Below are positions 14,006 through 56,260 of a stretch of 64,000 bases of DNA, in pieces. The stretch covers positions 7,502,014 to 7,566,013 of the forward strand of contig OY743169.1 of assembly GCA_963555705.1 (NCBI GenBank), written 5' to 3'. The position numbers and the translations under genes were made by a program. Positions within the stretch are counted from its first letter, which is position 1. Each line of letters starts with the position of its first letter. The notes under the pieces were generated by a model. That model was not told the origin of the DNA. It was given only the letters and a program-made list of their open reading frames with translations, and ran no database searches. This DNA is from Ligustrum vulgare (taxonomy: Eukaryota; Streptophyta; Magnoliopsida; Lamiales; Oleaceae).

Positions 14006-14077
14006 GCGTTTGTAGTCCAACGGTTAGGATAATTGCCTTCCAAGCAATAGACCCGGGTTCGACTCCCGGCAAACGCA
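14006..14077 (+). tRNA. tRNA-Gly (anticodon UCC)
   Basis: 72 nt cloverleaf. The acceptor stem is GCGTTTG/CAAACGC. The D-arm is TAGTCCAACGGTTAGGATA-like. The anticodon stem ATTGC/GCAAT encloses loop CTTCCAA, giving anticodon TCC. The T-arm reads CCGGGTTCGACTCCCGG. The discriminator base is A, and CCA is not encoded, as in nuclear tRNA genes. A T-rich stretch follows as a Pol III stop. There is no intron. Confidence 0.96.
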
Positions 14078-14165: not shown

Positions 14166-16733
14166 TGTTATAAAACTATTGTAAAGTCTAAAGATGAGAG
14201 AAATATGGAGAGGTAAGGAGAATTCTTCTTCTTTCAATCAATGCCCAAATGAGAAGTTAAACCCCATATTTACAGGGGTATAATGATCATTCACTATATT
14301 TTATAACACTCCCCCTTGAAAGATTGATTACCCAATGTCTGCTTCGTTAAAACCTTGTTAAGAAAATTTAGTGGGATAAAACTTAAGCGAAGGAAAAAAA
14401 GTACAGTCATTTTGAAGTATAAAAATAATGCTGCCTCATTAAAACTTTGCTAGGAAAATCTAGTGGAATAAAACCTAGACGAAGGAAAAAGAGTACAGCT
14501 ACTCCCCCTGATATTGGTCATCGTAAATCATTGAGCCGACGCATCCCTATCTCGTGTATCAATTTCTTGAATATAGATGTCGGAAATGCTTTAGTAAATA
14601 AGTCAGCCACATTATCACTTGAACGAATTTGTTGAACATCGATATCTCCTGCTTTCCGAAGCTCATGTGTATAGAAGAATTTGGAGAGATGTGTTTTGTT
14701 CTATCTCTTTTGATATAGCTTCCTTTGAGTTGTACAATACAAGCTGCATTATCTTCATACAATATCGTTGGGCTATCTTTTGTCGAAATTAATCCGCATG
14801 ATGAATGGATATGATGAGTCATGTTTCTCAGCCATATAGATTCTCGACTTGTCTCATGGATTGCAATAATTTGAGTGATTTGAAGATGTTGCTGTCAAAG
14901 TTTGCTTCACAGATCTCCATGATATTACTGTTCCACCACGTGTAAACACATATCTTGTTTGTAAAAAAAAAAAAAAAAAAAAGGTTGAACCCCAATCTTA
15001 GGGGCCCCCACCTGCCCTGCCTTGGGCCTTTGTGAATGATGTAAATTGCAGGTTATGCCTTCCAGAATATAGGGTGAGGACTTACCTTTTAACTTGGTAA
15101 GAGCCGGATTCGAACCCCTGACCAAGTGAGGCTGGTCTTTAAACCATCCTCCCTTTCACCGCTGGGAGATGTGCCCTAGGGGAGTTTTTTTTTTTTCATA
15201 TCCTGTTGGTGATTTGGCTTGATGTGGATCAGATAGATAACCTGCGTATGCATATCCCATTAAAGAAAATCCCAATTTGTGAGAATAAAGTAACCCCATA
15301 TCAATAGTACCTTTTAGGTAACGAAGAATGTGTTTAACATCATTCCAATGCCTTTGAGTTGGTGCAGAACTATATCTCGCGAGAAGATTTACAGAAAATA
15401 ATTTATTGAAATCTCATTATTCTCAGACATCTGTGATTCTGCGGGAACCACGTTCTCACTATTAGGTTGTTTCATTGAAATCTTTGGTTCTTCAGGAATC
15501 ATGTCACCACTATTAGATTGATCAAACTTTTCTAGTATTACTTGTTCAGGAGTCTTTGGTTGGTTTACTTTCCTCTTACGAGGTACAATATCTTTTGAAC
15601 CAACTGGTCTACCACGCTTCTGGTGTATTTGATATTCACTTGCTATACCAATTTGTCCTACAGAGACATCAATCTTTGCTGGAGTATTTTCTGCTGGTAT
15701 ATATGACTTTGTCACATTTCTTGTGTCAACAAATATATCAAGTAATTGATTTGTATCTCTTTGCAAATGAATAACTTTCTCAACCTCTTTCTCACATTGA
15801 TTGTTTCGGGGATCAAAGTAAGATAGAGTTGTTTCATTCCAAGAAATTTTATCATGTTTTTCAGGATGCAACTTTACTTCCCCTAAAATTGGAAAAATCA
15901 TTTCATCAAAATGAAAATCTACAAAACGTGCAGTAAACAAATGACCTGTTAAAGGTTCAAGGTACCTGATAATTGAAGGTGAATCAAAACTAACATAAAT
16001 CCCAAGTCTACGTTGGGGACCCATTTTGGTACGTTGTCGGGGAGATATTGGGACTTCGACAGTACAACCAAAAACCCTTAGGTGAGAAATATTAGGTTCA
16101 TGACCAGATGCAAGTTGTAGAGGTGAGTATTGATAATAAGCAGTTGATAAATGGGAACTTTGATGATCAGGTGAAGGAATTGGAGAGGAGAACTGAAGCT
16201 CAAAAGATGCATAATGCATAAGCGAACTTTGTTTAAGGTGTGGGCATGTTTAATGTGAGATGAAGGGAAAATAGAGGAGGAGGGAGCACAATGTAGAAAC
16301 GAACTTTGTCTAAGGCGTGGGCACGCCTGCAGAAAAATTAATTGAGCAAAAAAAAAATTGTTTTTTTGGAAGAAAAAACTTGGAGAGGATGGGTGAGAGG
16401 GCAGGATACTGCTAGACAGAGTATGGGAGCTGACGGAAGAGATTTTGATGAAATGAAGGGTGGTCGAGCTTAACGGGGGACTATTGAAAAAAATTGTTGG
16501 ATAGAATAACTGACTACTGGATGGGAGGGCTACCAGAACCTATTGGATGGACAAGATTGCAAGAAAGATGAACTGGAAACGGTGAAGGAGAAGGCTGGCT
16601 CCTAGAATTAAAGGGAGGAGGCTGTTTGAGGAAAAAGGGAGAATTGATGAAAAGAGAATGGTAAAAGGAGGCTGCTGGAAGTAAGAAAATTTTGAGCTGC
16701 TCGTGAGAGTCTTAATTTGGCTCTAATACCATG
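14166..16733 (-). mobile_element. Decayed Ty1/copia retrotransposon
   Basis: Read on the minus strand. 14166-14308 is a 143-bp 3' LTR with ends TGTTATAAAA/TTTTATAACA, preceded by the polypurine tract AAGGGGGAG. Two copies of a 3' repeat (AGTACTTTTTTTCCTTCGC-like) lie at about 14336-14500. The end of reverse transcriptase/RNase H follows at about 14510-15380 (RYSSAPTQRHWNDVKHILRY; TILYEDNAACI; frameshifted). An open frame at 15389-16219 encodes the integrase C-terminus (SHLRVFGCTVEVPISPRQRT; GPQRRLGIYVSFDSPSIIRY). Gag, protease, the integrase core and most of RT are missing. At 16717-16733 the minus strand reads TGGTATTAGAGCC, a decayed primer-binding site for initiator tRNA-Met. A matching 5' LTR was not found. 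It is defective. Confidence 0.85.
14963..15196 (-). mobile_element. tRNA-derived SINE (Au-like) inside the copia remnant
   Basis: 234 bp in minus orientation. The Pol III B box is perfect (GGTTCGAATCC) and a degenerate tRNA-like head precedes it. The 3' end is a T-rich run. The target duplication CATATCTTGTTTGT / CATATCCTGTTGGT (14949-14962 and 15197-15210, 12 of 14 matching) lies within the copia coding sequence after SPTGY, and the reading resumes as VFTRGGTVISWRS. Its 3' half is similar to the SINE at 23639. Confidence 0.88.
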
Positions 16734-17839: not shown

Positions 17840-19515
17840 GTGATTGATTATGTGTAATTGACTAATTTTGACCAATTATTAGGTAATTGTAATCAAAATG
17901 TCGACTAAATGTGACTTTGTGCGACTTGTGACAAGTACGGAATGTAACAAATTATTATTAGGTAATTGTGACAAAAAATATTAACTAATCTTTTAAAAAA
18001 AGATAAATAAGTTGTGACCAATAAATAGATAATATGTGATCAAATATAAATGATTGTGACCAATTATATTAGAGGTTGTGATCATCTATAACTTTATGTG
18101 ACCATTGGACGAGGACCTGATGTGACTTATAGTTGTGTCAACTATGACTGTGTGACCGAACTATTATACATGTGACGGAACTGTGATCTTGGGTGACCAA
18201 ACTATAATTATATGTGACTTCATGTGATTGATCTGTGACTGGAATGTGACCTCATGTGACCAGACTGTGATCTCATGTGACCTAACTGGAACTTTGTTTG
18301 ACTAAACTGTAACCAACTGGGACTTTTGTGTGACCAACTGTGACCCTAACTGCGACTTTGTGTGACCAAACTGTGACCTTGTGTGACCAATTGTGATTTC
18401 GTGTAACCAACTGTGACTTTGGAAGTGGGGTGAGGTTTATTTGTAATTGTGACTTTGTGTGACCAGCTGTGACTAGACATGAGGGGTGGGTGGGGTCAAT
18501 TTTCCAACTAAATTTTTAATTGTGATCGAATTTTGACTTTGTATGACCAATTGTGACTTTGCATGTGGGAAGAAGTTATGTTGGGTATGTGGGGTTGCGG
18601 TGAAATTTGTGATTAAATTTGTAATTGTGATTTTTTTGACTCAAATATGACTAATTTTTAGGTAAATGTCATCAAAATATTGACTAATTGTGACTTTGTG
18701 CAACTTGTGGCGAGTAAGGAATGTGACAAATTATTAGGTAAATGTGACCAAAATATTGATTAATTGCGATCAATTGTGACTTTGTGTGACCATTAGATGA
18801 TGATGTGATGTGACCTACAGTTGTGTTAAACATGACTTTGTGTGATCGAACTGTGACTTTTTGTGAGCGAATTGTAACCTCCCGCGATCGAACTTTGACT
18901 TTATATGACCTAACTGTGACCTTGTGTGATTGAATTGTAATCTCGTATGATCGAGCTGTGACCTTATGCAATCGAACTGTGACTTTATGTGACCCAACTG
19001 TGATCTCGTGTGATCGAACTGTGACCTTGTGTGATCGAACTGTGACCTCGTGTGACTAGATTGCGACATTGTGTGACCAACTGTGACCTAACTGTGACTT
19101 TGTGTGATGGAACTGTGACCTTGTGTGATCAATTATGACTTTTTGTGACCAACTGTAACTTGGTGTGACCATTGGATGAGGACGTGATGTGACCTACAAT
19201 TATGTCAAATATGACTATGTGTGAGCGAATTGTGACTTTGTAAGAACGAAGTGTGACTTTATGTGATCGACCTGTAACCTCGTGTGATCTAATCGTGACC
19301 TCGTTTGACCTAATTGTGACCTCCTGTGACCTAACTGTGACCTCGTTTGACCAAACTGCGATTTTGTGTGACCGAACTTTGACCTTGTGTGGCCAACTGT
19401 GACTTTGGGGGGTGGGATTTTACAACTAAATTTGTAATTGTAACTCTTTGTGACCTTGTGTGACTTAACTGCGATCTCGTGTCAACTTACGTGACTGACT
19501 GTGATTTTGGGGGTG
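17840..19515 (+). repeat. TGTGAC minisatellite, unit about 21 bp
   Basis: Roughly 1.7 kb of degenerate tandem units of the form AACTGTGACCTTGTGTGAYCG. The 21-bp period is seven codons, so reverse frames stay open and give heptapeptide repeats (SQFDHTR-like). The order is most regular between about 18790 and 19400. The same TGTGAC/GTCACA word is dense in the non-coding parts of the MULE at 25-40 kb. Confidence 0.9.
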
Positions 19516-19529
19516 GGGATGGTGGGGTA

Positions 19530-21030
19530 GAGGGCGGGTGGGACTAGAAAAAGTAGAAGAAATCATTTTATTGTGGTGAGATAGGGTCGAGGTGGGTTGG
19601 TGGGGTGGGATCGAGGTTGAAAAAGTAGAAGAAAAAAATTATTTTTTTGGAGTGGGGTGGGTGGCGGGTAGGGTGGGGTCTAGGTTGGGTTGGGGGTTGG
19701 AAAAAGTAGAAGAAAAAAATTATTTTTTTGGGTGGGGTGGGGTGGGGTGGGTTGAGATGAGGTGGTTGGGGGTGAAGTGTGAAAAAATAGAAGAAAAATA
19801 ATTTTTTGATGGGGTATGGTGGATGGCGGGGTGTGGCGGTTGGGGGGAAGTGTAAAAAAATAGAAGAAAAATCATTTTTGGATGGAGTAGAGATGGTTGG
19901 GTGGGTGTAAAAAATAGAAGAAAAATCATTTTTGGATGGGGGTATGGTGGGATAGGATGGGGCGGTTGAGGTGAAGTGTGAAAAAATAGAAGAAAAATCA
20001 TTTTTGGGTGGGGTGTGAAAATATAGAAGAAAAATCATATTTTTGTGGGGTAGGATGGGGTGGGATGGGGTGGGTAGGTGGGTGGCGAGGTAGGGTCGGG
20101 CGGGGTGGGTAGGGGAGTGAAAAATTAGGAGAAAAAAAATAATTTTGGGTGGGGTGGGGTTGGGGATGAGTGACGGGGTAGGGTCTGGGTGAGTCGTGGA
20201 AAAGTAGTAAAAAAAAAATCATTTTAGATGAGGTGGGTTGGGGTAGGGTCTGGGGCAAGGCTGATGGGGGAGTCGAAAATTAGTGCAAAAAAATTAATTT
20301 TGGATGGGGTAGGTGGCGGGGTAGGATATGGTAGGGTCTTGGTGAGTTGTGGAAAAGTAGTAGAAAAAAATCATTTTGGGGTGAGGTGGGGGTGGGATAG
20401 GGTGGGTGGCTGAGATGAGAAAAAAATAGAAGTAAAATCATTTTTGTGGTGTGGTGTGGTGGGTGAGTGGTGGTGGGGTGGGTTGGGATTGGGGTGGAGT
20501 GGGGTGGGGGTGGGGTGGAGTGGGGTGGATAAGTTGGTGTCGGGGGTGGGGTGAGTGTGAAAAAGTAGAAGGAAAAAATTCATTTATTGATTTGAGGTGG
20601 GGTGGATAAGTTGGTGTCGGGTGTGGGGGTGAGTGAAAAAGTAGAAGGAAAAAATTCATTTATTGAGTTGATGTGGGGTGGGGTGGGGTGGGTTTCCGGG
20701 GTGGGGTGAGGTGAGTGCGGGGTTGTGTTGGATTGGGTTGGGATGGAGTGGTGGGTGGGTGTGTGTGATGGGATGGGACTAGTGGGTGGGTGGGGGGAGA
20801 AAAAATAGAAGTAACATCATTCTTGTGGTGGGGTGAGGTTGGGTTGGTGGGTGAGTGAGTGGTGGCGGGGTGGTTGGGTGGTGGGGTTGTGGAGGAGTGT
20901 TGGGTGGAGTGGGTAAGTCGGTGTTGGGGGTGGGGGTGAGTGTGGAAAAGTATAAGGAAAAAAGTTATTTTATGGGGTGGGGTGGGTTCCGGTGGGTGGG
21001 GTGGGTGGAGGGTTGGATTGGGATGGAGTG
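19530..21030 (+). repeat. G-rich minisatellite array
   Basis: About 17 divergent units of 55-90 bp. Each has an A-rich core (GAAAAAGTAGAAGAAAAAAT) followed by ATTTTTGGGTGGGGTGGGG-type G runs. Strand asymmetry is extreme: G on plus, C on minus. Long proline/histidine-rich minus frames here are repeat artefacts. The many GGGG/GGG runs could form G-quadruplexes. Confidence 0.92.
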
Positions 21031-48500: not shown

Positions 48501-51500
48501 CCAGATCCAGTACTTCACCACCAGAAATAAGCTACAATTTTTTTACACTGCAAGGCGGTTGGAGGTTATTTAGTCGGTCTTCGATCTCCTTTTGCCTTAA
48601 AAAGAAGTATCTTATTCTTTAAAAAGATGCTTAATAGCATGCTATGAACAAGCTGAAAATGAAGACTGTGACTTTTAATGAGTTTGTGCTTTATGGAAGA
48701 ATAAAAGAAAGAAAAACACTTAAGAGCTTTTTTGGTAATGTGAAAATTTTTGGTTTTTGTGGGGTTTTTTTTTTTTTTTTATGAATGTGTAGTTTAAAAA
48801 TGTTTAAAAAGTCAAAATTTGTTGGCTTGATTAAGAATGGATGATTGAGATTGAGTTTGAAAAGTTTTGATAAATTTTTTTTACTTTACCAAACAAGCAC
48901 TTAATTAGAAACCCTCTACAACTAAATGCATCGAGGATACAAAAACTTGTTTACACAACACCGTGAATAAATTAAGAAACCCTTAAAGCCAACCTACTAT
49001 TGTCTTCCTTTATATTACAAAATAACCAAATATTCTCAACTATGATGCACTGACGCGGATACGTGTATCTGACACTATGTATGTCGGACAAGTCGACACA
49101 CAATTTTTCAAAAAAAGTACCGACACGACACGTTGTCAACGTGTTAATTAAAATATTTAAAATTCTTCATTTATATAGTATAAATTTAGTTTTATACTTA
49201 TTATTAATTTTGTTTGCTGAAATCTTTTATATTTGAATACCTATTTTTTATTTTATAATAATTTTTTTGAGTTAAGAAATATATGATTTCTCTTATAAAG
49301 AAAGAAAAATGACCATAGTAGAGCGTCATAAGATTGTCGTATCCAACACGTATTTCTTAAACTAATGTCCTTATGTAGGCTTCAGGGTTTTTCTTTGCCT
49401 AGATTTTCAATTTAAACACTTTATCCATTATCTGTTATAAAATATATGAAAATTAGGCAAAAGTTAGGCACATTTAGGTAAAATTAGGTGAATTCCATAT
49501 TACCATTATGCCCCTGTAAAATTTACATATTACGATTATACCATTATCCGCCCCCCTATAAATAGGGCACCATATATTCATTTGTAAGATGTACCAATTC
49601 TTTGGAATGAAGAATTCTCCTCCTTCTCCCTAGCTCTCAATCTCTCTCTATAATTCTTGGTTAGAATTTTGATAGTTTTACAACACGTTATCAGCACGAG
49701 TCTCTACCCTATTGAGTAATATGACGGGAGTATGCTCTACAGTTGCATCTAAATGATGAACCTCTGTATCAGAAACCAGATTATTATTAATCATCATTTA
49801 TACATCATAGATTAGAAGATCAATTCCAAATACGTAGAAAAATTGAAGAAATTGTATAATCCGAAACTTCCAAACCAAATTCACGCCAATCCGTTTATCC
49901 AAATGATGATCGGAGACCGGATCCATGACCACGGCGACCGGACGATTCTTCCGAACCGGCGCGTGTCGACGGCACCGGCACCGGCGCGGCGGCGCGTGAC
50001 GCGCGTGAAGACCACGAGCAGACATCGAGGCGGCGCGTGCGGCGGAATCAGGCGACGACGTCAACAGGAAGTTTGTTCATATCGACGATCTTGATTTTTC
50101 TATGATCTTACTTTTCTGTTTTGTGCAGTTCTGAGATTTTCCGGCGATCGAACGTGGCGGTTTTCTTAAAAATCGTTTTTGAAGCACTTCCGACGGGATT
50201 TTGAACTTCGGACCAAAAGTAAGTTTGTTCTAAATTAAAGTTCAAACCTATTGAAGGTTTTGATTTATCCATATGAGCAACATATTAAAATATGGACAAT
50301 TTTACCCTTGGTAATACATAAAAGTAAATTAATCGAAAATTAACGATTAATATGTGATCAACAAGATAAATTAAAGATTTTAAACAAAGTATAATTAAAA
50401 ATAATCATTGTCATACCGTGACGGATTAAGTTATTATGGACTGAATTTATACCGCAACGGATTGGACTATTATGAGTACCTTGACTGGATTTTGACAATA
50501 TGACTTGATCACTATTATGAATACCTTGACTGGAGGATATGACTCGCTCACTCATGAAAGGTAATTATTTCATTATGTTGACACCGCCTATATGGTCGGT
50601 TTACGGAATACTTTACATATATTCATATTCTATATTATTTCAAAAACACCTCAATTGTTGGTTAATTCTAACATATTAGAGGATGTTGTCAACATATATA
50701 CGTGGTGATATTATTATTGTTTAACCTATATACATGGTGATATTATTGTTATTTGATACTTCATCAAATGATACCAGAAGTTATCATTACCAAAAATTTG
50801 GTAAATGTTGATAAAAATATTTCATCCAATGGTACCAGAAGTTACCAATATCTGAATTTGAATTGGTAAATGAAAATTATTCAACAAAAGAATGTTGATG
50901 TATGATAAGATAATATCACATGATAGCTCGGATATGGCTAATGTGAAAATAATCTCATCAATATTATGAGATGAATATTAGATGATAAAGTGTCTGGAAA
51001 TGTTCTTGCACGAGCACTTATGTATTCCAGAAGAAGTACATATTTACTCCAGAAGAAGTAAAAATTATCATCTAAACATACTGAAATGATATTATTATTA
51101 TTGCTCCTGAAGAAGTATAAACGAGACATACATGCAAAACGCAAAAGGGGGAAACATTAATGATCCTCAAAATGAGAGATGTGTTTCGGGAGTAGCCGTA
51201 TCCTACCACCTCTGAACTTTTGAGGAAATAAAGAAAAAGGTGTGTTTCAAGAGTAAGAAATACTCCATACTCTACCACCTTAAATCTTTGAGGTACACAA
51301 GATTAAACATAAACAAAATCCTAGAAATTTATGGTGTGTCTCAAGAGTGAGAATACTCCGTACTCTACCACCACCTATTCTAGGGTTCACAAAGATAAAT
51401 TTACATTAACCGGACTCCATTTTCGCTTGATTCCCCTTCCTTGCGACCAATCTATCTTTACTCCTGCTGGATCTTGTATTGGAATATATGATTGCAACTT

Positions 51501-54500
51501 ATCCAGCAGTTCCTCGATAGTAGGAGCAGAAATAAGGATTCTCCTAGAAAATGGAGAGATGAATCCCTGTTCCACAGCATAATCAAGAAATGTTAGCAAA
51601 CCATCAAAGAAATTGTTTACATTTAAAAGCCCAATAGGCTTAGTATGGAGATCTAGTTGAGCCCATGAGGTAATATTAAAGATTTCTTCTAAAGTACCAA
51701 AACCTCCAGGCAGAGCTATGAAGGCATCAGAACCATATAGCATGCAAGTTATGCGTTCATGGATAGATAAGGTTTGTACTTCATGCCCTCGTGTTTTGCT
51801 TGCGATATCAGCTAAAGGAGTAGGTATAACACCTATCACTCTTGCTTTCTCTGCTAGAGCAGATTGTGAAACACAACCCATCAATCCACTGCTACCTCCT
51901 CCATACACGAGAGTGATACCTTTCTCTCCCAATTTCTTTCCTAAATCCACGGCTGCTTCTAGATACCCAAAACCTTTTCCTACTTTTGATCCACAAAATA
52001 CACAGATAATTTTGATGTGTCGAAGTTTTGATCCTTCCATCTTTGAAAGAATAAGGAAAAACTTACAAGAAAATGTTATTTTGGGATGCATAAACTGTAA
52101 AAATCATTGGCTTTTTAAACTTGAAAAACTTCACTATTTACTACTCGTATTTCGAAAAAGTGAAGATTTACTTTTGACAAAATCACCATACTCACCTTTC
52201 GGTGATTTAATATTTAACCAGCCTTTATCAAAACTCGTGAAAGAAAACAGAAAAATATTATATATATATATATATTTAATGATTTACCTTGTATTAATGC
52301 TGCATAGCCAAAACATCATTGTTTATAACAGCCTGGCAAACAGGATCTTTTGCTATTATATTTTTGAGACTATAATGCTCTTTATCGCTGATGAATTTAG
52401 CCCATAAAGATAGTAGCTCACGCTGCACATACCCACTAGGGTGCGTCTCAAGAGTCAATCGGATATCATCCAATGACTCCTTACTCAGCCCACCCTTAAT
52501 GAAGTCTATCTTATCATCTCGATTTATAGATGAATACCCTATTGACTTACAACGGGTATCACATGTCCATCGAGCACATTTGTAGCAACTATTTAATCTT
52601 TTTGCTCTTCGCTTCTTTGCAAAAGTACTCTTACCTAAGCCAGGTTTGTGCTTAGAAAATGAATCTGGTAATTCACCAGCTAATCGAACTTTCGCTTCGA
52701 TCAACCAGCGAACATCTTCTGGGATGCCATGATCCATCAGCAACCTCAATCTTTCGAGCCTAATTCGATAAATTTTTCTCAAATCATTTACTGGAAGATT
52801 GGAATAATATTTGCGAATATTTGAAAGTATGATATCCATTTTTGATGCATCTAACCTTCTTCCCAAATCATCTATTTAAATGCATTATTCAACGTGTGAA
52901 AGAGCGATAGCTCCGCGTGTCAGTGATATCGATTCCATTAAGAGATAATGGAATAAATTATTGAAAATGTGAGAACAATGAGATAATGCGTCATTACCTT
53001 TTTCGATATAAGGGAAGATTTGGCGACAAGATTGAGATATTTTCATTGGATATTGTACCTGATTTTTCCGGTATAAAAGTAATAAAGGTATGCTGATTTG
53101 AACTGTACAGAAATACGTACTGATGAAATGAATACTGTATTGAACCAGAAGTTCATACATATGTACAAGTGAAATATCTTGTTGAACCAGAAGTTCTATA
53201 ATGATTGGTTAGATTCCAATTCAATAATGAGATTTATTGAGAATGAATAATGGCATTCATTAAAGAACCAGAAGATTGTTATCATTGCTGCTTGTTCTCA
53301 AAAGCAAATTAATTATCTCACTAAATGAATGACTGATTATTTGCTCAAGTAATGATATTACGAGCAAAGTGATAAATGCTAGCATGAATATATCTTAAAG
53401 TCATTAATGATTTTACGAATTAGTTGAGATAATAGAATATTATATTGCTAATGGTTTAGCAGATTAAAAGCCTCAAGTTATTTTCTATGAGAACAATTTG
53501 ATTATGCAGCAATATTCTACATATAAATATGTCAATACGATGAAATAATGATTTGCTTGTAAAACTTTATGATTTCTAAGAAGTGCGATATCTATATACA
53601 CTCCAACAATACGCACTTGATATATGATTGTATGACATGTGTTGCGGCATTTTAGTCGATTGATATAATATAAGATTTGTGAATATTATGGGGAAAACAC
53701 GCTTAAAGCGTAATTATGCCTGAAGCATAATGAGAATCGATTCCAAAAATAAATATCTCTTGAATGATTGAGATAATCCCTTTAAGGCTGAATACTCATA
53801 GTGAGTATAAGGGACATAGTTAAAAGAGATTCAGGTACCTGATGATAGAACATATACAGAGATCTCTCTATGTTATATTGAGTTGAAATGGAATCGATAA
53901 ATAAGTCGACTACATACAACCCTCTTATGAAAATGAGGTTGATGAAATTATAATACTTTGGCCAAGTATATAACCCCAATGTAGGGATTATTATTCAAGG
54001 ACCAGAAGTCCAAATGCTTAAATGTAAAGCCAGTAATTATATGTATAAATGAAAAATATTTCACAGTCGTAGATGACGACTCGTTGCGCGCAAGATTTTT
54101 CATTGAACTGGCATGACATATGGTGGATGTGACTATAATCTAAATCACTAGCTTGAGCTCTTTGATATACCAATGAGTGAGATCAAAAAAGTGTGATTCT
54201 CATCTCGGTATTTTGAGGGTATTCTTTGATGTACCAGTTGATCGCGGTACGTTGAGATTTCAAGTAAAATGATTGTAGATTATATGTCAAAATTGATATC
54301 TATTTCAATGATTGATTATGCTCCTGCAAATTAGAAATTGCAGTTTATAAAGTGCAAGAACATACATGTATAAATCATTGAAAGATTCAATATGCCCAGA
54401 TTAGTATCACTATAGAATGATACAAATGACCTCATAATATAATATGTTGAAATTGAAATTGGAGTGTACTATTATTATATTTGAATATTTGGGCATGCAA

Positions 54501-56260
54501 TTGATTTTCAATATGCAAAATTATATTATCCACCGGAAATTGATTATTCACCAGAAGTGAATATGAAAATGAATATTTAATTATTCATCAGATGTGAATT
54601 CTAGATTTTGATAGAAGTGAATCAATTCTAGATTTGAGTAATGCAATCAGTCAACTAAATAAACATTGCTTGGTATAACATGTTCAGTACATCATAAATA
54701 AACTATGACATCATAAATGAGCTATGAATGATTTATATAAAGCTCATCATGAATGATATGTTTTGATGAAAAGATATGATATTGCATCAATATACTTGTG
54801 ATATTCCATGAAAAGGAATAAATACGCGTTGCACTCTTTTTCCCTTAGCTGAGGTTTTTCCCACAGGGTTTTCCTAGCAAGGTTTTTAATGAGGCAACAG
54901 TTGAGGCGTATTGATGAAAACTAATGAGAATAATGTACTCTTTTTCCCTTCGCTGAGGTTTTGTCCCACAGGGTTTTCCTAGCAAAGGTTTTTGAGGTAT
55001 CATCATAGCTATCAACAAGCTATAATTAACAACACATTGTTATACTGGAATGATATCAATAAATGAAGAAAATCATACACATCTTATGAAGAATGTTATG
55101 ATATCGGCTACACACAAGAAGATTTTCATATATATTCCAGACGAAAGATGATATCAATGTTCGAGAAATTCATGAATCCTCAATTGCACACTTCAGGGGG
55201 AGAATCATGCTGTACTCTTTTTCCTTCGTCCAGGTTTTGTCCTACTAGGTTTTCCTGACAAGGTTTTAACGAGGCAGCAGCTGTACTCTTTTTCCTTGAT
55301 TCAGATTTTATCCCACTGGGTTTTACTGACAAGGTTTTAATGAGGCAGCACTTCAGAACTTCAAAATTCAGTACATGATTTGTTGGAATGTCAGACTCAA
55401 TGATTCACTATGGCCAACATCAGGGGGAGCAACTGTACTCTTTTTCCTTCGCTCAAGTTTTATCCCACTGGGTTTTCTTAGCAAGGTTTTAACGAGGCAG
55501 ACAATTGAGCAAGCGAGTAATATGTCATTCAAGGGGGAGTGTTATAAAATATATGAAAATTAGGCAAAAGTTAGGCACATTTAGGTAAAATTAGGTGAAT
55601 TCCATATTACCATTATGCCCCTGTAAAATTTACATATTACGATTATACCATTATCCGCCCCCCTATAAATAGGGCACCATATATTCATTTGTAAGATGTA
55701 CCAATTCTTTGGAATGAAGAATTCTCCTCCTTCTCTCTAGCTCTCAATCTCTCTCTATAATTCTTGGTTAGAATTTTGATAGTTTTACAACATTATCAAT
55801 ATTATCATATTAGTTGGTTGTTTATTAATAAAATTTTGAGAGTTTCTCAATTCTTCTATTTTTAGAGTATTCAGAGTGAAACAATGAATATTTGATGCCC
55901 AAATCCTCAGTATTCAACTAATTTAACAAGTTTTTGGAGTGCTAATCACATTCCACATAATTTCCGCTGGATCACTCAAGCAACTTGTTTTGAGTAGAAA
56001 TCAATAGGTAAATACACATATAACATGAACTGTAGAGTTCCAAGTGCATATAATTACCATTGGTAAAACAGAAATTTCCCAAAAATTATATAAATATATA
56101 TATAGAGCTTCATATATGTGCAGAGATATATAAATTGTAGACAGTAGAGAGAAACCTACCAGTCAGGAGAGAGAAAATCGGGAACGTTGGAAGCTGAAGC
56201 TCGAATACGGGGGCCGAGAGGCTTGCAAGGTGTGGAGAGTAGAGGTGCAGCAAACGACAT
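45571..56260 (-). CDS. Conserved plant protein, probably chloroplast-targeted, 7 exons
   Basis: Exons: 56260-56160, 47310-47268, 47182-47090, 46989-46927, 46716-46621, 46547-46470 and 45657-45571. All have GT-AG borders and join in frame to 186 aa plus TGA. The N-terminus (MSFAAPLLSTPCKPLGPRIR...) is Ser/Ala/Arg-rich and lacks acids, like a plastid transit peptide. The mature part contains SAEEAVRYQLDAL, NDQPRQDYGIEVMYRFAG, FDPFERSTYFGPFFDLGQ, FERFRRIFHHSSYRVLL, RGARPEEEEIFQFTMVQ and GGSWDGYWLTESLLHDGD, recognised as a conserved protein of green plants whose biochemical role I cannot state (possibly NTF2-like fold). Intron 1 is 8.85 kb because an LTR element (49433-55792) inserted in it; without it the intron would be about 2.5 kb. 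No coding damage was seen. Confidence 0.9.
47311..49427. other. Intron 1 of the chloroplast protein gene, part before the LTR element
   Basis: AT-rich with no additional gene. A MITE with ends GAGCTTTTTTGGTAA and inverted GTGCTTGTTTGGTAA lies at about 48724-48900. At about 49050-49360 GGATACGTGTATCTGACAC and an inverted relative suggest another decayed DNA element. Confidence 0.5.
49433..49685 (+). repeat. 5' LTR
   Basis: 253 bp. It holds a clear TATA box TATAAATA at 49557-49564 in a CCCCCCTATAAATAGGGC context. It begins TGTTATAAAATATATG and ends GTTTTACAACA. Confidence 0.95.
49557..49564 (+). promoter_or_regulatory. LTR TATA box
   Basis: TATAAATA within the 5' LTR, about 120 bases before the LTR end, the expected place for the element's own promoter. 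Confidence 0.7.
49686..49700 (+). promoter_or_regulatory. Primer-binding site-like sequence
   Basis: CGTTATCAGCACGAG directly follows the 5' LTR, a sequence commonly seen at this place in plant copia elements. The exact primer tRNA cannot be named from here. Confidence 0.6.
49701..51386 (+). other. 5' internal non-coding part of the LTR element
   Basis: No retroviral domain. 49930-50060 is a GC-rich patch (GGCACCGGCACCGGCGCGG). Three related copies of GTGTTTCAAGAGTAAGAAA...TACTCTACCACC lie at about 51178, 51240 and 51335, just before the LOG-like stop codon. Confidence 0.6.
51387..52040 (-). CDS. Intronless LOG-like cytokinin-activating enzyme inside the LTR element
   Basis: 217 aa from the ATG at 52040 (MEGSKLRHIKIICVFCGS; an in-frame ATG 17 codons upstream is less family-like). 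LOG enzymes split cytokinin riboside 5'-monophosphates into free cytokinin and ribose 5-phosphate in the cytosol. Seen here: ICVFCGSKVGKG near the N-terminus, nucleotide-binding LVYGGGSSGLMG at ~45-56, a conserved Arg in IHERITCM, the signature PGGFGTLEE at ~115, then TSWAQLDLHTKPIGLLNV. Length fits plant LOGs. Plant LOG genes are normally split by several introns, while this one is a single exon. It lies antisense between the LTRs of a young element and in the sense of the surrounding host gene. The open frame is intact. Whether it is expressed is unknown. Confidence 0.9.
   Translation of the reverse strand: MEGSKLRHIKIICVFCGSKVGKGFGYLEAAVDLGKKLGEKGITLVYGGGSSGLMGCVSQSALAEKARVIGVIPTPLADIASKTRGHEVQTLSIHERITCMLYGSDAFIALPGGFGTLEEIFNITSWAQLDLHTKPIGLLNVNNFFDGLLTFLDYAVEQGFISPFSRRILISAPTIEELLDKLQSYIPIQDPAGVKIDWSQGRGIKRKWSPVNVNLSL
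52294..52866 (-). CDS. 190-aa protein with a carlavirus NABP-like basic/Cys core
   Basis: Complete 190-codon frame, same strand as the LOG-like gene and 253 bp upstream of it. Residues ~30-70 are amphipathic (RLERLRLLMDHGIPEDVRWL). Residues ~80-125 contain a basic stretch AKKRRAKR directly followed by a Cys cluster (C-x2-C-x4-C-x3-C) and an aromatic/Asn segment. This order resembles the nucleic-acid-binding, Cys-rich protein family of carlaviruses and relatives (Betaflexiviridae), proteins that bind RNA and act as silencing or transcription modulators. The second half of the Cys motif is spaced differently from the viral family, and the ~65 C-terminal residues are unrecognised. If the match holds, this is an endogenised viral-type gene. 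Otherwise it is an orphan zinc-finger protein. Confidence 0.5.
   Translation of the reverse strand: MGRRLDASKMDIILSNIRKYYSNLPVNDLRKIYRIRLERLRLLMDHGIPEDVRWLIEAKVRLAGELPDSFSKHKPGLGKSTFAKKRRAKRLNSCYKCARWTCDTRCKSIGYSSINRDDKIDFIKGGLSKESLDDIRLTLETHPSGYVQRELLSLWAKFISDKEHYSLKNIIAKDPVCQAVINNDVLAMQH
52867..54828 (+). other. 3' internal AT-rich part of the LTR element
   Basis: About 2 kb, AT-rich, with scattered CCAGAAG words and no recognisable domain on either strand. Small frames here (for example 52885-53160 minus, 53782-53979 minus) are not supported. Confidence 0.5.
54829..55501 (+). repeat. Five ~68-bp repeats in the 3' region of the LTR element
   Basis: Copies at about 54829, 54936, 55211, 55281 and 55433 share TACTCTTTTTCCTTCGCT, CCCACTGGGTTTTCCTAGCA and AGGTTTTAACGAGGCAGC. 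Inverted relatives occur at 14336-14500 in the copia remnant, so they mark the family. Confidence 0.9.
55540..55792 (+). repeat. 3' LTR
   Basis: 253 bp, identical to the 5' LTR except for one C/T difference in CCTTCTCYCTAG. Its TATA box is at 55664-55671. The polypurine tract AAGGGGGAG lies at 55531-55539. Confidence 0.95.

What the first reader, a model, noticed from the sequence alone, without database searches (positions are those of the whole stretch)
51387..52866. LTR element carrying an intact, intronless LOG-like gene plus a viral-NABP-like gene, antisense to the element
Between two 253-bp LTRs that differ at a single base lie two full-length minus-strand ORFs and no gag or pol. One is a LOG-type cytokinin-activating enzyme with all signature motifs in one exon. 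The other has a basic stretch and Cys cluster like carlavirus nucleic-acid-binding proteins. Intact frames in a very young element suggest recent capture through RNA. A mobile cassette pairing a cytokinin activator with a viral-type nucleic-acid-binding protein is, to my knowledge, not described.
Basis: partly seen in the sequence, partly recalled or inferred. Interest (0 to 1): 0.93.

Follow-up and report, generated by a model that had tools for sequence, protein, structure and literature searches.

The report
Retrotransposon with viral-type and LOG genes
A plant jumping gene with no recognisable copying genes of its own carries, pointing backwards, two intact genes whose relatives also lie side by side in other plants: one resembles a plant-virus nucleic-acid-binding protein, the other a hormone-activating enzyme whose substrate pocket has changed and whose family keeps a tail that likely lets it act as a gene silencer in the nucleus.

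Summary
Window 49433-55792 is an LTR element: 253-bp LTRs with one mismatch, TSD TTATC, PPT, no gag/pol domain in the frames scanned. Two intact antisense genes lie inside: NABP (52294-52839, 181 aa) and a LOG-fold protein (51387-52040, 217 aa). The 3' end matches a Copia remnant in the same window; the primer site resembles the half-tRNA-Ile type reported for Bianca Copia elements.

"Recent capture" fails: NABP is a large family, NABP and LOG are joined in gene models of Orobanche and Citrus, and NABP follows an integrase in sense in L001. NABP shows purifying selection (one pair, dN/dS 0.29).

"Cytokinin activator" is weakened: the proposed catalytic Arg and Glu remain, but pocket residues changed (Lys to Ile, Glu to Asn); one Orobanche lineage lost the Arg too. 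What persists in the clade is a tail, KRK-LDLxLxL, like a basic signal plus EAR repression motif, slightly degenerate here. I infer a nuclear accessory pair. LOG-type domains in Citrus and Populus Gypsy elements were already reported; my searches found no report of the NABP pairing or tail.

The parts
49428..49432 (.). target-site duplication TTATC, 5' copy
49433..49685 (+). 5' LTR, 253 bp, TG...CA
   Evidence: one mismatch to the 3' LTR
49686..49700 (+). primer-binding-site-like CGTTATCAGCACGAG, directly after the 5' LTR; half-tRNA-Ile type (inferred)
   Evidence: sequence; PMC6317226 passage says Bianca Copia elements use half-tRNA-Ile; the tRNA-Ile anticodon arm is recalled, from no call
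51387..52040 (-). LOG-fold protein, 217 aa, one exon, antisense to the element; catalytic Arg96/Glu119 kept, Lys100-equivalent is Ile97, Glu125-equivalent is Asn122; C-terminal KRKWSPVNVNLSL
52095..52287 (-). possible intron of a two-gene antisense transcript (GTAAAT...TTTTTACAG); inferred from sequence only
   Evidence: sequence
52294..52839 (-). NABP: 181 aa, basic stretch KKRRAKR plus C-x2-C-x4-C-x3-C
52873..52880 (-). TATA-like TTTAAATA upstream of the NABP ATG; candidate antisense promoter element (inferred)
   Evidence: sequence
54821..55500 (+). 3' internal repeats (CTCTTTTTCC...GAGGCA), partly shared with a Copia remnant at 14.3-14.5 kb
55530..55539 (+). polypurine tract CAAGGGGGAG
   Evidence: sequence; same tract before the LTR of the Copia remnant
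55540..55792 (+). 3' LTR, 253 bp
55793..55797 (.). target-site duplication TTATC, 3' copy

Best explanation
This is an LTR retrotransposon with near-identical LTRs and no recognisable gag-pol, most likely a Copia (Bianca-like) derivative moved by a full relative, that carries antisense to itself the two intact genes of a recurring NABP-LOG cassette, whose products likely act together in the nucleus as accessory factors of the element rather than as a cytokinin-making enzyme. Shown: LTRs, TSD, PPT, absence of gag/pol domains in the frames scanned, both ORFs, the 3' end shared with a Copia remnant, joined NABP-LOG gene models in Orobanche and Citrus, the changed LOG pocket, the conserved basic plus LxLxL tail of the LOG clade, purifying selection on NABP (one pair). 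Inferred: the pair is expressed from an antisense promoter upstream of NABP, perhaps as one transcript with an intron between the genes. NABP, with a basic stretch and a four-Cys cluster, would bind nucleic acid and, as carlavirus proteins of that type do, blunt silencing or alter transcription. The LOG-fold protein would enter the nucleus through its basic tail and recruit a TOPLESS-type corepressor, with its nucleotide pocket as a sensor, a platform or a leftover.
For: Structure and TSD; no gag/pol; shared 3' repeats, PPT and LTR start with a Copia remnant. Recurrence: 22 of 120 listed hits (of 150) carry both domains by the precomputed Pfam column, 20 Orobanche (the query P0028 among them) and 2 Citrus; consecutive tags OROGR_009121 LOG / 009122 NABP and OROGR_021006 NABP (joined to Copia-type gag) / 021007 LOG. 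Selection: NABP window against L001, NG86 dN 0.29, dS 1.00; LWL85 0.26, 0.66. LOG drift: 40 of 120 listed hits lack the Lys, 32 of these 40 end in LxLxL against 1 of the 80 with Lys; tail Leu at -1 in 34, -3 in 35, -5 in 33 of 35 counted tails, basic at -10 in 33. In one Orobanche lineage the Arg is replaced in 27 of 27 rows with that column (29 rows), while 19 of 29 still end in LxLxL. Arg99 and Lys100 are AMP-site residues whose replacement by Ala is reported to nearly abolish CgLOG activity (PMC4979012 passages); LxLxL recruits TOPLESS (PMC10942257 passages).
Against: No expression, localisation or binding data. In the window's own LOG one tail Leu is Val (VNLSL), so the motif is imperfect just here. 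The window LOG keeps the proposed catalytic Arg and Glu, so some nucleotidase activity may remain. A second Orobanche lineage (P0265, P0268) keeps Arg and Glu and ends DAFLSL, not LxLxL. The one non-Copia locus (L001) has NABP in sense and no LOG, so the two genes are not always paired. Four of 41 clade rows stop right after the basic stretch without LxLxL. The Citrus joined models fall below Pfam's curated cut-offs in my own scan and lack the segment with Arg and PGG, by deletion or by the annotator's intron. NABP's model is poor (pLDDT 66, pTM 0.30), and its Cys spacing differs from the carlavirus finger given in PMC8839810. Whether the other LOG rows of the clade sit in transposons is inferred, except where joined models or cluster sizes speak for it.
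Confidence: 0.5

Rival explanations
1. The LOG is a working cytokinin activator: the element raises active cytokinin in cells that express it, which would favour division and transmission of new insertions through meristem cells; NABP would add silencing suppression.
For: LOG fold predicted with confidence (pLDDT 87, pTM 0.83), best PDB match AtLOG3 2a33; PGGxGTxxE, Arg and Glu kept. The carlavirus NABP of chrysanthemum virus B is linked to cell proliferation (PMC8839810 passage).
Against: Lys100 to Ile, Met96 to Ile and Glu125 to Asn; alanine changes at AMP-site residues nearly abolished CgLOG activity (PMC4979012 passages). A related Orobanche lineage has lost the Arg as well.
Confidence: 0.15
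2. The cassette is a passenger: a piece of another element was picked up by a non-autonomous Copia derivative, and its frames are open only because the copy is young.
For: One LTR mismatch in 253 leaves little time for decay; NABP occurs without LOG in L001; the window's tail motif and NABP C-terminus diverge from relatives.
Against: NABP evolves under constraint between two element types (dN/dS 0.29, one pair); the pair recurs in Orobanche and Citrus gene models; tail and finger residues are conserved in distant rows.
Confidence: 0.22
3. The antisense RNA matters, not the proteins: convergent transcription makes double-stranded RNA that tunes the element's own silencing.
For: Proposed for antisense ORFs of plant LTR elements in PMC7264820 (parts 1 and 2 of 3 read).
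Against: Protein-level conservation of NABP and of the LOG tail is not expected for an RNA-only role.
Confidence: 0.1
4. Assembly join or chimera rather than a real element.
For: Only one copy is in the window and the genome could not be searched.
Against: Perfect TSD and regular PPT/LTR junctions; NABP before LOG also in the joined models of Orobanche and Citrus.
Confidence: 0.02

Closest known systems
LTR elements with a YgdH (LOG-type) extra domain in Citrus and Populus (PMC9289625; Steinbauerova et al. 2011 as cited there, not read)
   Same: LOG-type domain inside plant LTR retrotransposons
   Different: Reported in consensus sequences found through the reverse transcriptase; section 12 says that all 15 extra domains passing its filter were in Gypsy-type, not Copia-type, elements. 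No NABP partner, tail or pocket change appears in the section I read. Here: a Copia-like element without gag-pol, with NABP and LOG antisense.
Antisense accessory ORFs of Grande, RIRE2, Retand, PvRetro13 (PMC7264820 parts 1-2, PMC11963269 passages)
   Same: Antisense, conserved extra genes in plant LTR elements, with proposed nuclear or regulatory roles
   Different: PMC7264820 states no similarity of those ORFs to viruses or to genes outside transposons; here one protein matches viral NABP models and the other the LOG family.
Nucleic-acid-binding proteins of plant RNA viruses (Pfam Viral_NABP, Carla_C4)
   Same: Basic stretch followed by a four-Cys cluster; Pfam matches in 47 and 46 of 53 members; the top, though not significant, BFVD hit is a Garlic virus A NABP (E 0.64)
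   Different: Encoded by a retrotransposon; spacing C-x2-C-x4-C-x3-C rather than the C-x2-C-x12-C-x4-C given for jasmine virus C.
LONELY GUY (LOG) phosphoribohydrolases
   Same: Fold and PGGxGTxxE motif, catalytic Arg/Glu
   Different: One exon, in a transposon, separate clade (support 100/98), Lys/Glu pocket residues replaced, basic plus EAR-like tail in the clade.

Membership tests
Non-autonomous LTR retrotransposon | paired LTRs with TG..CA ends, 5-bp TSD and PPT | tested here: met
Non-autonomous LTR retrotransposon | no gag or pol coding domain inside | tested here: met
   three + frames each side of the cassette, stops as X; only one unrelated hit at E 0.03; minus frames there not scanned
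Copia, Bianca lineage | half-tRNA-Ile primer site | tested here: inconclusive
   sequence CGTTATCAGCACGAG fits the description in PMC6317226; tRNA sequence recalled, not aligned
Copia, Bianca lineage | reverse transcriptase phylogeny | not testable with these tools
   the element has no RT; the link to Copia rests on its 3' end
LOG cytokinin-activating enzyme | PGGxGTxxE motif and catalytic Arg and Glu | tested here: met
LOG cytokinin-activating enzyme | adenine/prenyl pocket residues Met96, Lys100, Glu125 | tested here: not met
   Ile, Ile, Asn in the window
LOG cytokinin-activating enzyme | phosphoribohydrolase activity | not tested
   needs protein
Viral NABP family | match above the Pfam gathering score | tested here: met
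   Viral_NABP 37.1 against 23, Carla_C4 24.6 against 20.9
Viral NABP family | carlavirus-type finger spacing C-x2-C-x12-C-x4-C (as given for jasmine virus C) | tested here: not met
   C-x2-C-x4-C-x3-C in the alignment; spacing in other viral genera not tested
EAR-motif repressor | LxLxL motif in the window's own protein | tested here: not met
   window tail is VNVNLSL, one Leu replaced; strict LxLxL in 33 of the 120 listed LOG hits
EAR-motif repressor | TOPLESS binding | not tested
   needs a binding assay
Antisense accessory ORF of plant LTR elements | antisense to gag-pol, between pol and the 3' LTR | tested here: inconclusive
   antisense to the PBS-to-PPT direction is met; position relative to pol cannot be judged without pol

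The most novel reading that the evidence does not exclude
Plant LTR retrotransposons of both superfamilies share a mobile two-gene accessory cassette that joins an RNA-virus-type nucleic-acid-binding protein with a LOG enzyme remade into a nuclear, corepressor-recruiting pseudoenzyme: a transposon effector pair that reprograms host transcription or silencing, and a record of gene exchange between RNA viruses and retrotransposons.
Probability: 0.3. Interest if true: 0.88.

Novelty: new variant of a known kind. Interest (0 to 1): 0.66.

Why it matters
What antisense accessory genes do in plant retrotransposons is an open question; the review read here (PMC7264820, parts 1 and 2) calls the origin of most of them and their functions unknown. 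This family gives two testable proteins with recognisable ancestry, one shared with plant RNA viruses, and a series from an intact LOG pocket to a lost catalytic Arg while a repression-motif tail persists. There is also a practical point: members of the clade are annotated as host LOG genes (Diospyros lotus LOGL10, Primulina eburnea LOG3-like), so LOG gene-family surveys may count transposon copies.

Tried and rejected
Searching the window's own genome: the genome search did not complete, so copy number, sibling copies and the parental LOG in this genome are unknown. Viral contigs: two scans with the NABP found no relative. Genome contigs: one scan gave one plant-like contig, L001. PDB by sequence for NABP: nothing significant (best E 0.33). 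NABP fold: low confidence, no significant structural match. NCBIfam LOG equivalog cut-off: the window scores 108 against 300, but two canonical plant LOGs score 127 and 135, so it does not discriminate. Matching contig lengths between NABP and LOG hits was considered as linkage evidence and not used, since chance matches are likely. YN00 dN/dS failed with a math error; NG86 and LWL85 are reported. A first regular-expression count of pocket residues was misaligned and replaced; its count of LxLxL tails (33 of 120) agrees. Literature: nine paper searches. One search (retrotransposon, carlavirus, LOG terms) gave no paper; (Pfam names of the NABP families) gave two glyoxalase surveys, not opened; (retrotransposon with EAR terms) listed five papers, none on a transposon-encoded EAR protein by title, one opened for its passages on TOPLESS. 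Steinbauerova 2011 was not looked up or read; the Lukhovitskaya paper is not held.
Full report
Observation. The window holds a complete LTR element at 49433-55792. The LTRs are 253 bp, TG...CA, with one difference; the flanks carry TTATC twice. PPT CAAGGGGGAG sits against the 3' LTR and CGTTATCAGCACGAG follows the 5' LTR. At a recalled rate of 1.3e-8 per site per year one mismatch in 253 gives roughly 0.15 million years. Inside are two minus-strand ORFs that shuffled sequence does not give (0 of 2000 each). No gag or pol domain was found in three + frames on either side of them; minus frames there were not scanned.

Gene boundaries. Relatives of the NABP mostly begin MDxxL or MExxL and are about 176-186 aa; relatives of the LOG mostly begin MEG or similar and are 212-220 aa. 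The likely starts are therefore ATG 52839 and ATG 52040. Between the genes lies an AT-rich stretch with a GTAAAT donor right after the NABP stop and a TTTTTACAG acceptor before ATG 52091, so one spliced two-gene transcript is possible; this is inference.

Which element. The last part of the element (3' repeats, PPT, first LTR bases) matches 14290-14535 on the minus strand at 72-85% over seven pieces. That region is the 3' end of a Copia remnant with integrase-side and RNase H-like pieces (Pfam SH3_retrovirus; the other pieces by eye). Neumann et al. (PMC6317226, passages) report half-tRNA-Ile primer sites for Bianca Copia elements; the sequence after the 5' LTR fits, using a recalled tRNA. I call the element a probable Bianca-like non-autonomous Copia.

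The cassette is old and recurs. NABP: 402 hits at E 1 or better among 526 candidates, 120 listed, 14 of them with species names, all plants (Orobanche, Populus, Xanthoceras, Acer, Rhamnella), and clusters of up to 566 sequences (the cluster count may span assemblies). A search seeded with an Orobanche joined model listed 120 of 150 hits; 22 carry both NABP and LOG domains by the precomputed column, 20 from Orobanche species (the query included) and 2 from Citrus x changshan-huyou. In my own scan the Citrus models score just below the curated cut-offs, and a third Citrus model (P0283) looks the same; all three lack the segment with Arg and PGG but end in LDLTLRL or LDLTLGL. An Acer model (P0286) has NABP-like sequence before LOG (by eye). 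Two Orobanche pairs have consecutive locus tags, and one NABP model is joined to a Copia-type gag. L001, a 3330-bp contig filed in a bacterial MAG record, has an integrase ORF (rve, Integrase_H2C2), which I read as Gypsy-type from recalled domain order, followed in the same sense by an intact NABP; no LOG was found in it. Its NABP is 63% identical to the window's, with NG86 dN 0.29 and dS 1.00. So NABP travels in at least two kinds of LTR element and is under constraint; this is one pair only.

The LOG has changed. In CgLOG, Arg99 and Glu122 are the proposed catalytic residues, Met96, Lys100 and Glu121 form the adenine site, and Met96, His97, Lys100, Glu125 and Trp129 line the prenyl site; alanine changes at the AMP-site residues nearly abolished activity, with one exception, Ser19 (PMC4979012 passages). 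The window has Arg, both Glu of the motif, His and Trp, but Ile for Met96, Ile for Lys100 and Asn for Glu125. Of 120 listed LOG hits (of 7997), 40 lack the Lys; 32 of these 40 end in strict LxLxL, against 1 (P0156) of the 80 that keep it, most of which are host-type LOGs. In the tree 39 of the 40 (P0131 was among the 7 of 121 rows dropped by length), P0156 and the window make one clade of 41 rows (support 100/98; bootstrap not fully settled, root at midpoint). In 35 countable tails of the 41 rows Leu stands at -1 in 34, -3 in 35 and -5 in 33, basic residues at -10 in 33, and positions -2, -4 and -6 are not aliphatic but for one row at -4. This is the form of a basic signal plus an LxLxL EAR motif, which recruits TOPLESS in plant repressors (PMC10942257 passages). 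The window and its 92% relative P0121 have Val at -5. In an Orobanche lineage of 29 rows the Arg is Asn or Ser in all 27 rows that have the column, while 19 of 29 keep strict LxLxL, two have one Leu replaced and eight end elsewhere. Rows of one genus are not independent. A second Orobanche type (P0265, P0268) keeps Arg and Glu and ends DAFLSL. In the first lineage the tail thus outlives the active site. The predicted LOG model is confident except for its ends (pLDDT 87) and matches AtLOG3 2a33 best.

NABP. At E 0.001 Viral_NABP matches 47 and Carla_C4 46 of 53 aligned family members, nothing else. The window's match covers about 100 residues, not only the Cys cluster. KKRRAKR and four Cys (C-x2-C-x4-C-x3-C) are nearly invariant. 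Carlavirus proteins of this type bind nucleic acid, act as weak silencing suppressors, and in chrysanthemum virus B are linked to a host transcription factor and cell proliferation (PMC8839810 passage). Who gave the gene to whom is open. The structure model is weak.

Mechanism. I propose nuclear accessory proteins made from the antisense strand: NABP on nucleic acid or silencing, the LOG-fold protein as corepressor recruiter. The location and all interactions are predicted, none shown. A surviving enzyme function of the window LOG is not excluded.

Prior work. LOG-type YgdH domains in Citrus and Populus LTR elements are in print (PMC9289625 section 12, citing Steinbauerova 2011, not read); that survey reports its 15 filtered extra domains in Gypsy-type elements, not Copia. 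Antisense accessory ORFs are reviewed in PMC7264820 (parts 1 and 2 of 3 read) and studied in PMC11963269 (passages). My searches for the NABP pairing and for an EAR motif in retrotransposons showed no such report; subscription papers are not covered.

Check against the calls.

Noticed in passing
window 14200-16250, minus strand: Decayed Copia remnant (integrase-side ORF 15389-16219, RNase H-like end near 14520) whose 3' repeats, PPT and LTR start match the element; its LTR end lies close to a tRNA-Gly gene at 14006-14077.
   Followed up: partly
L001 194-2347: Integrase ORF, Gypsy-type by my reading, followed in sense by an NABP gene, in a contig filed under a Candidatus Nomurabacteria MAG (DAIEQH010000041.1), so that record probably holds plant contamination.
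   Followed up: yes
window 51180-51373: Three related stretches of about 40 bp (TGTGTxTC...CTACCACC on the + strand) just downstream of the LOG stop on the antisense strand; two have AGAGT/ACTCT inverted arms; role unknown.
   Followed up: no
window 19000-21000: Strongly strand-biased low-complexity tract (GC skew 0.87 at 20001-21000).
   Followed up: no
P0127, P0168: Cassette-clade proteins annotated as host LOG genes in Diospyros lotus and Primulina eburnea.
   Followed up: partly
P0151, P0160, P0161, P0166, P0171, P0174, P0178, P0201: A sister group, Xanthoceras where named and like the Acer model P0286 in its tail, keeps the full LOG pocket and ends in a basic stretch without LxLxL; it may show the state before the change.
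   Followed up: partly
P0258 (OROGR_021006): NABP gene model joined to Copia-type gag and zinc knuckle in Orobanche gracilis, with a LOG gene model at the next locus tag.
   Followed up: partly
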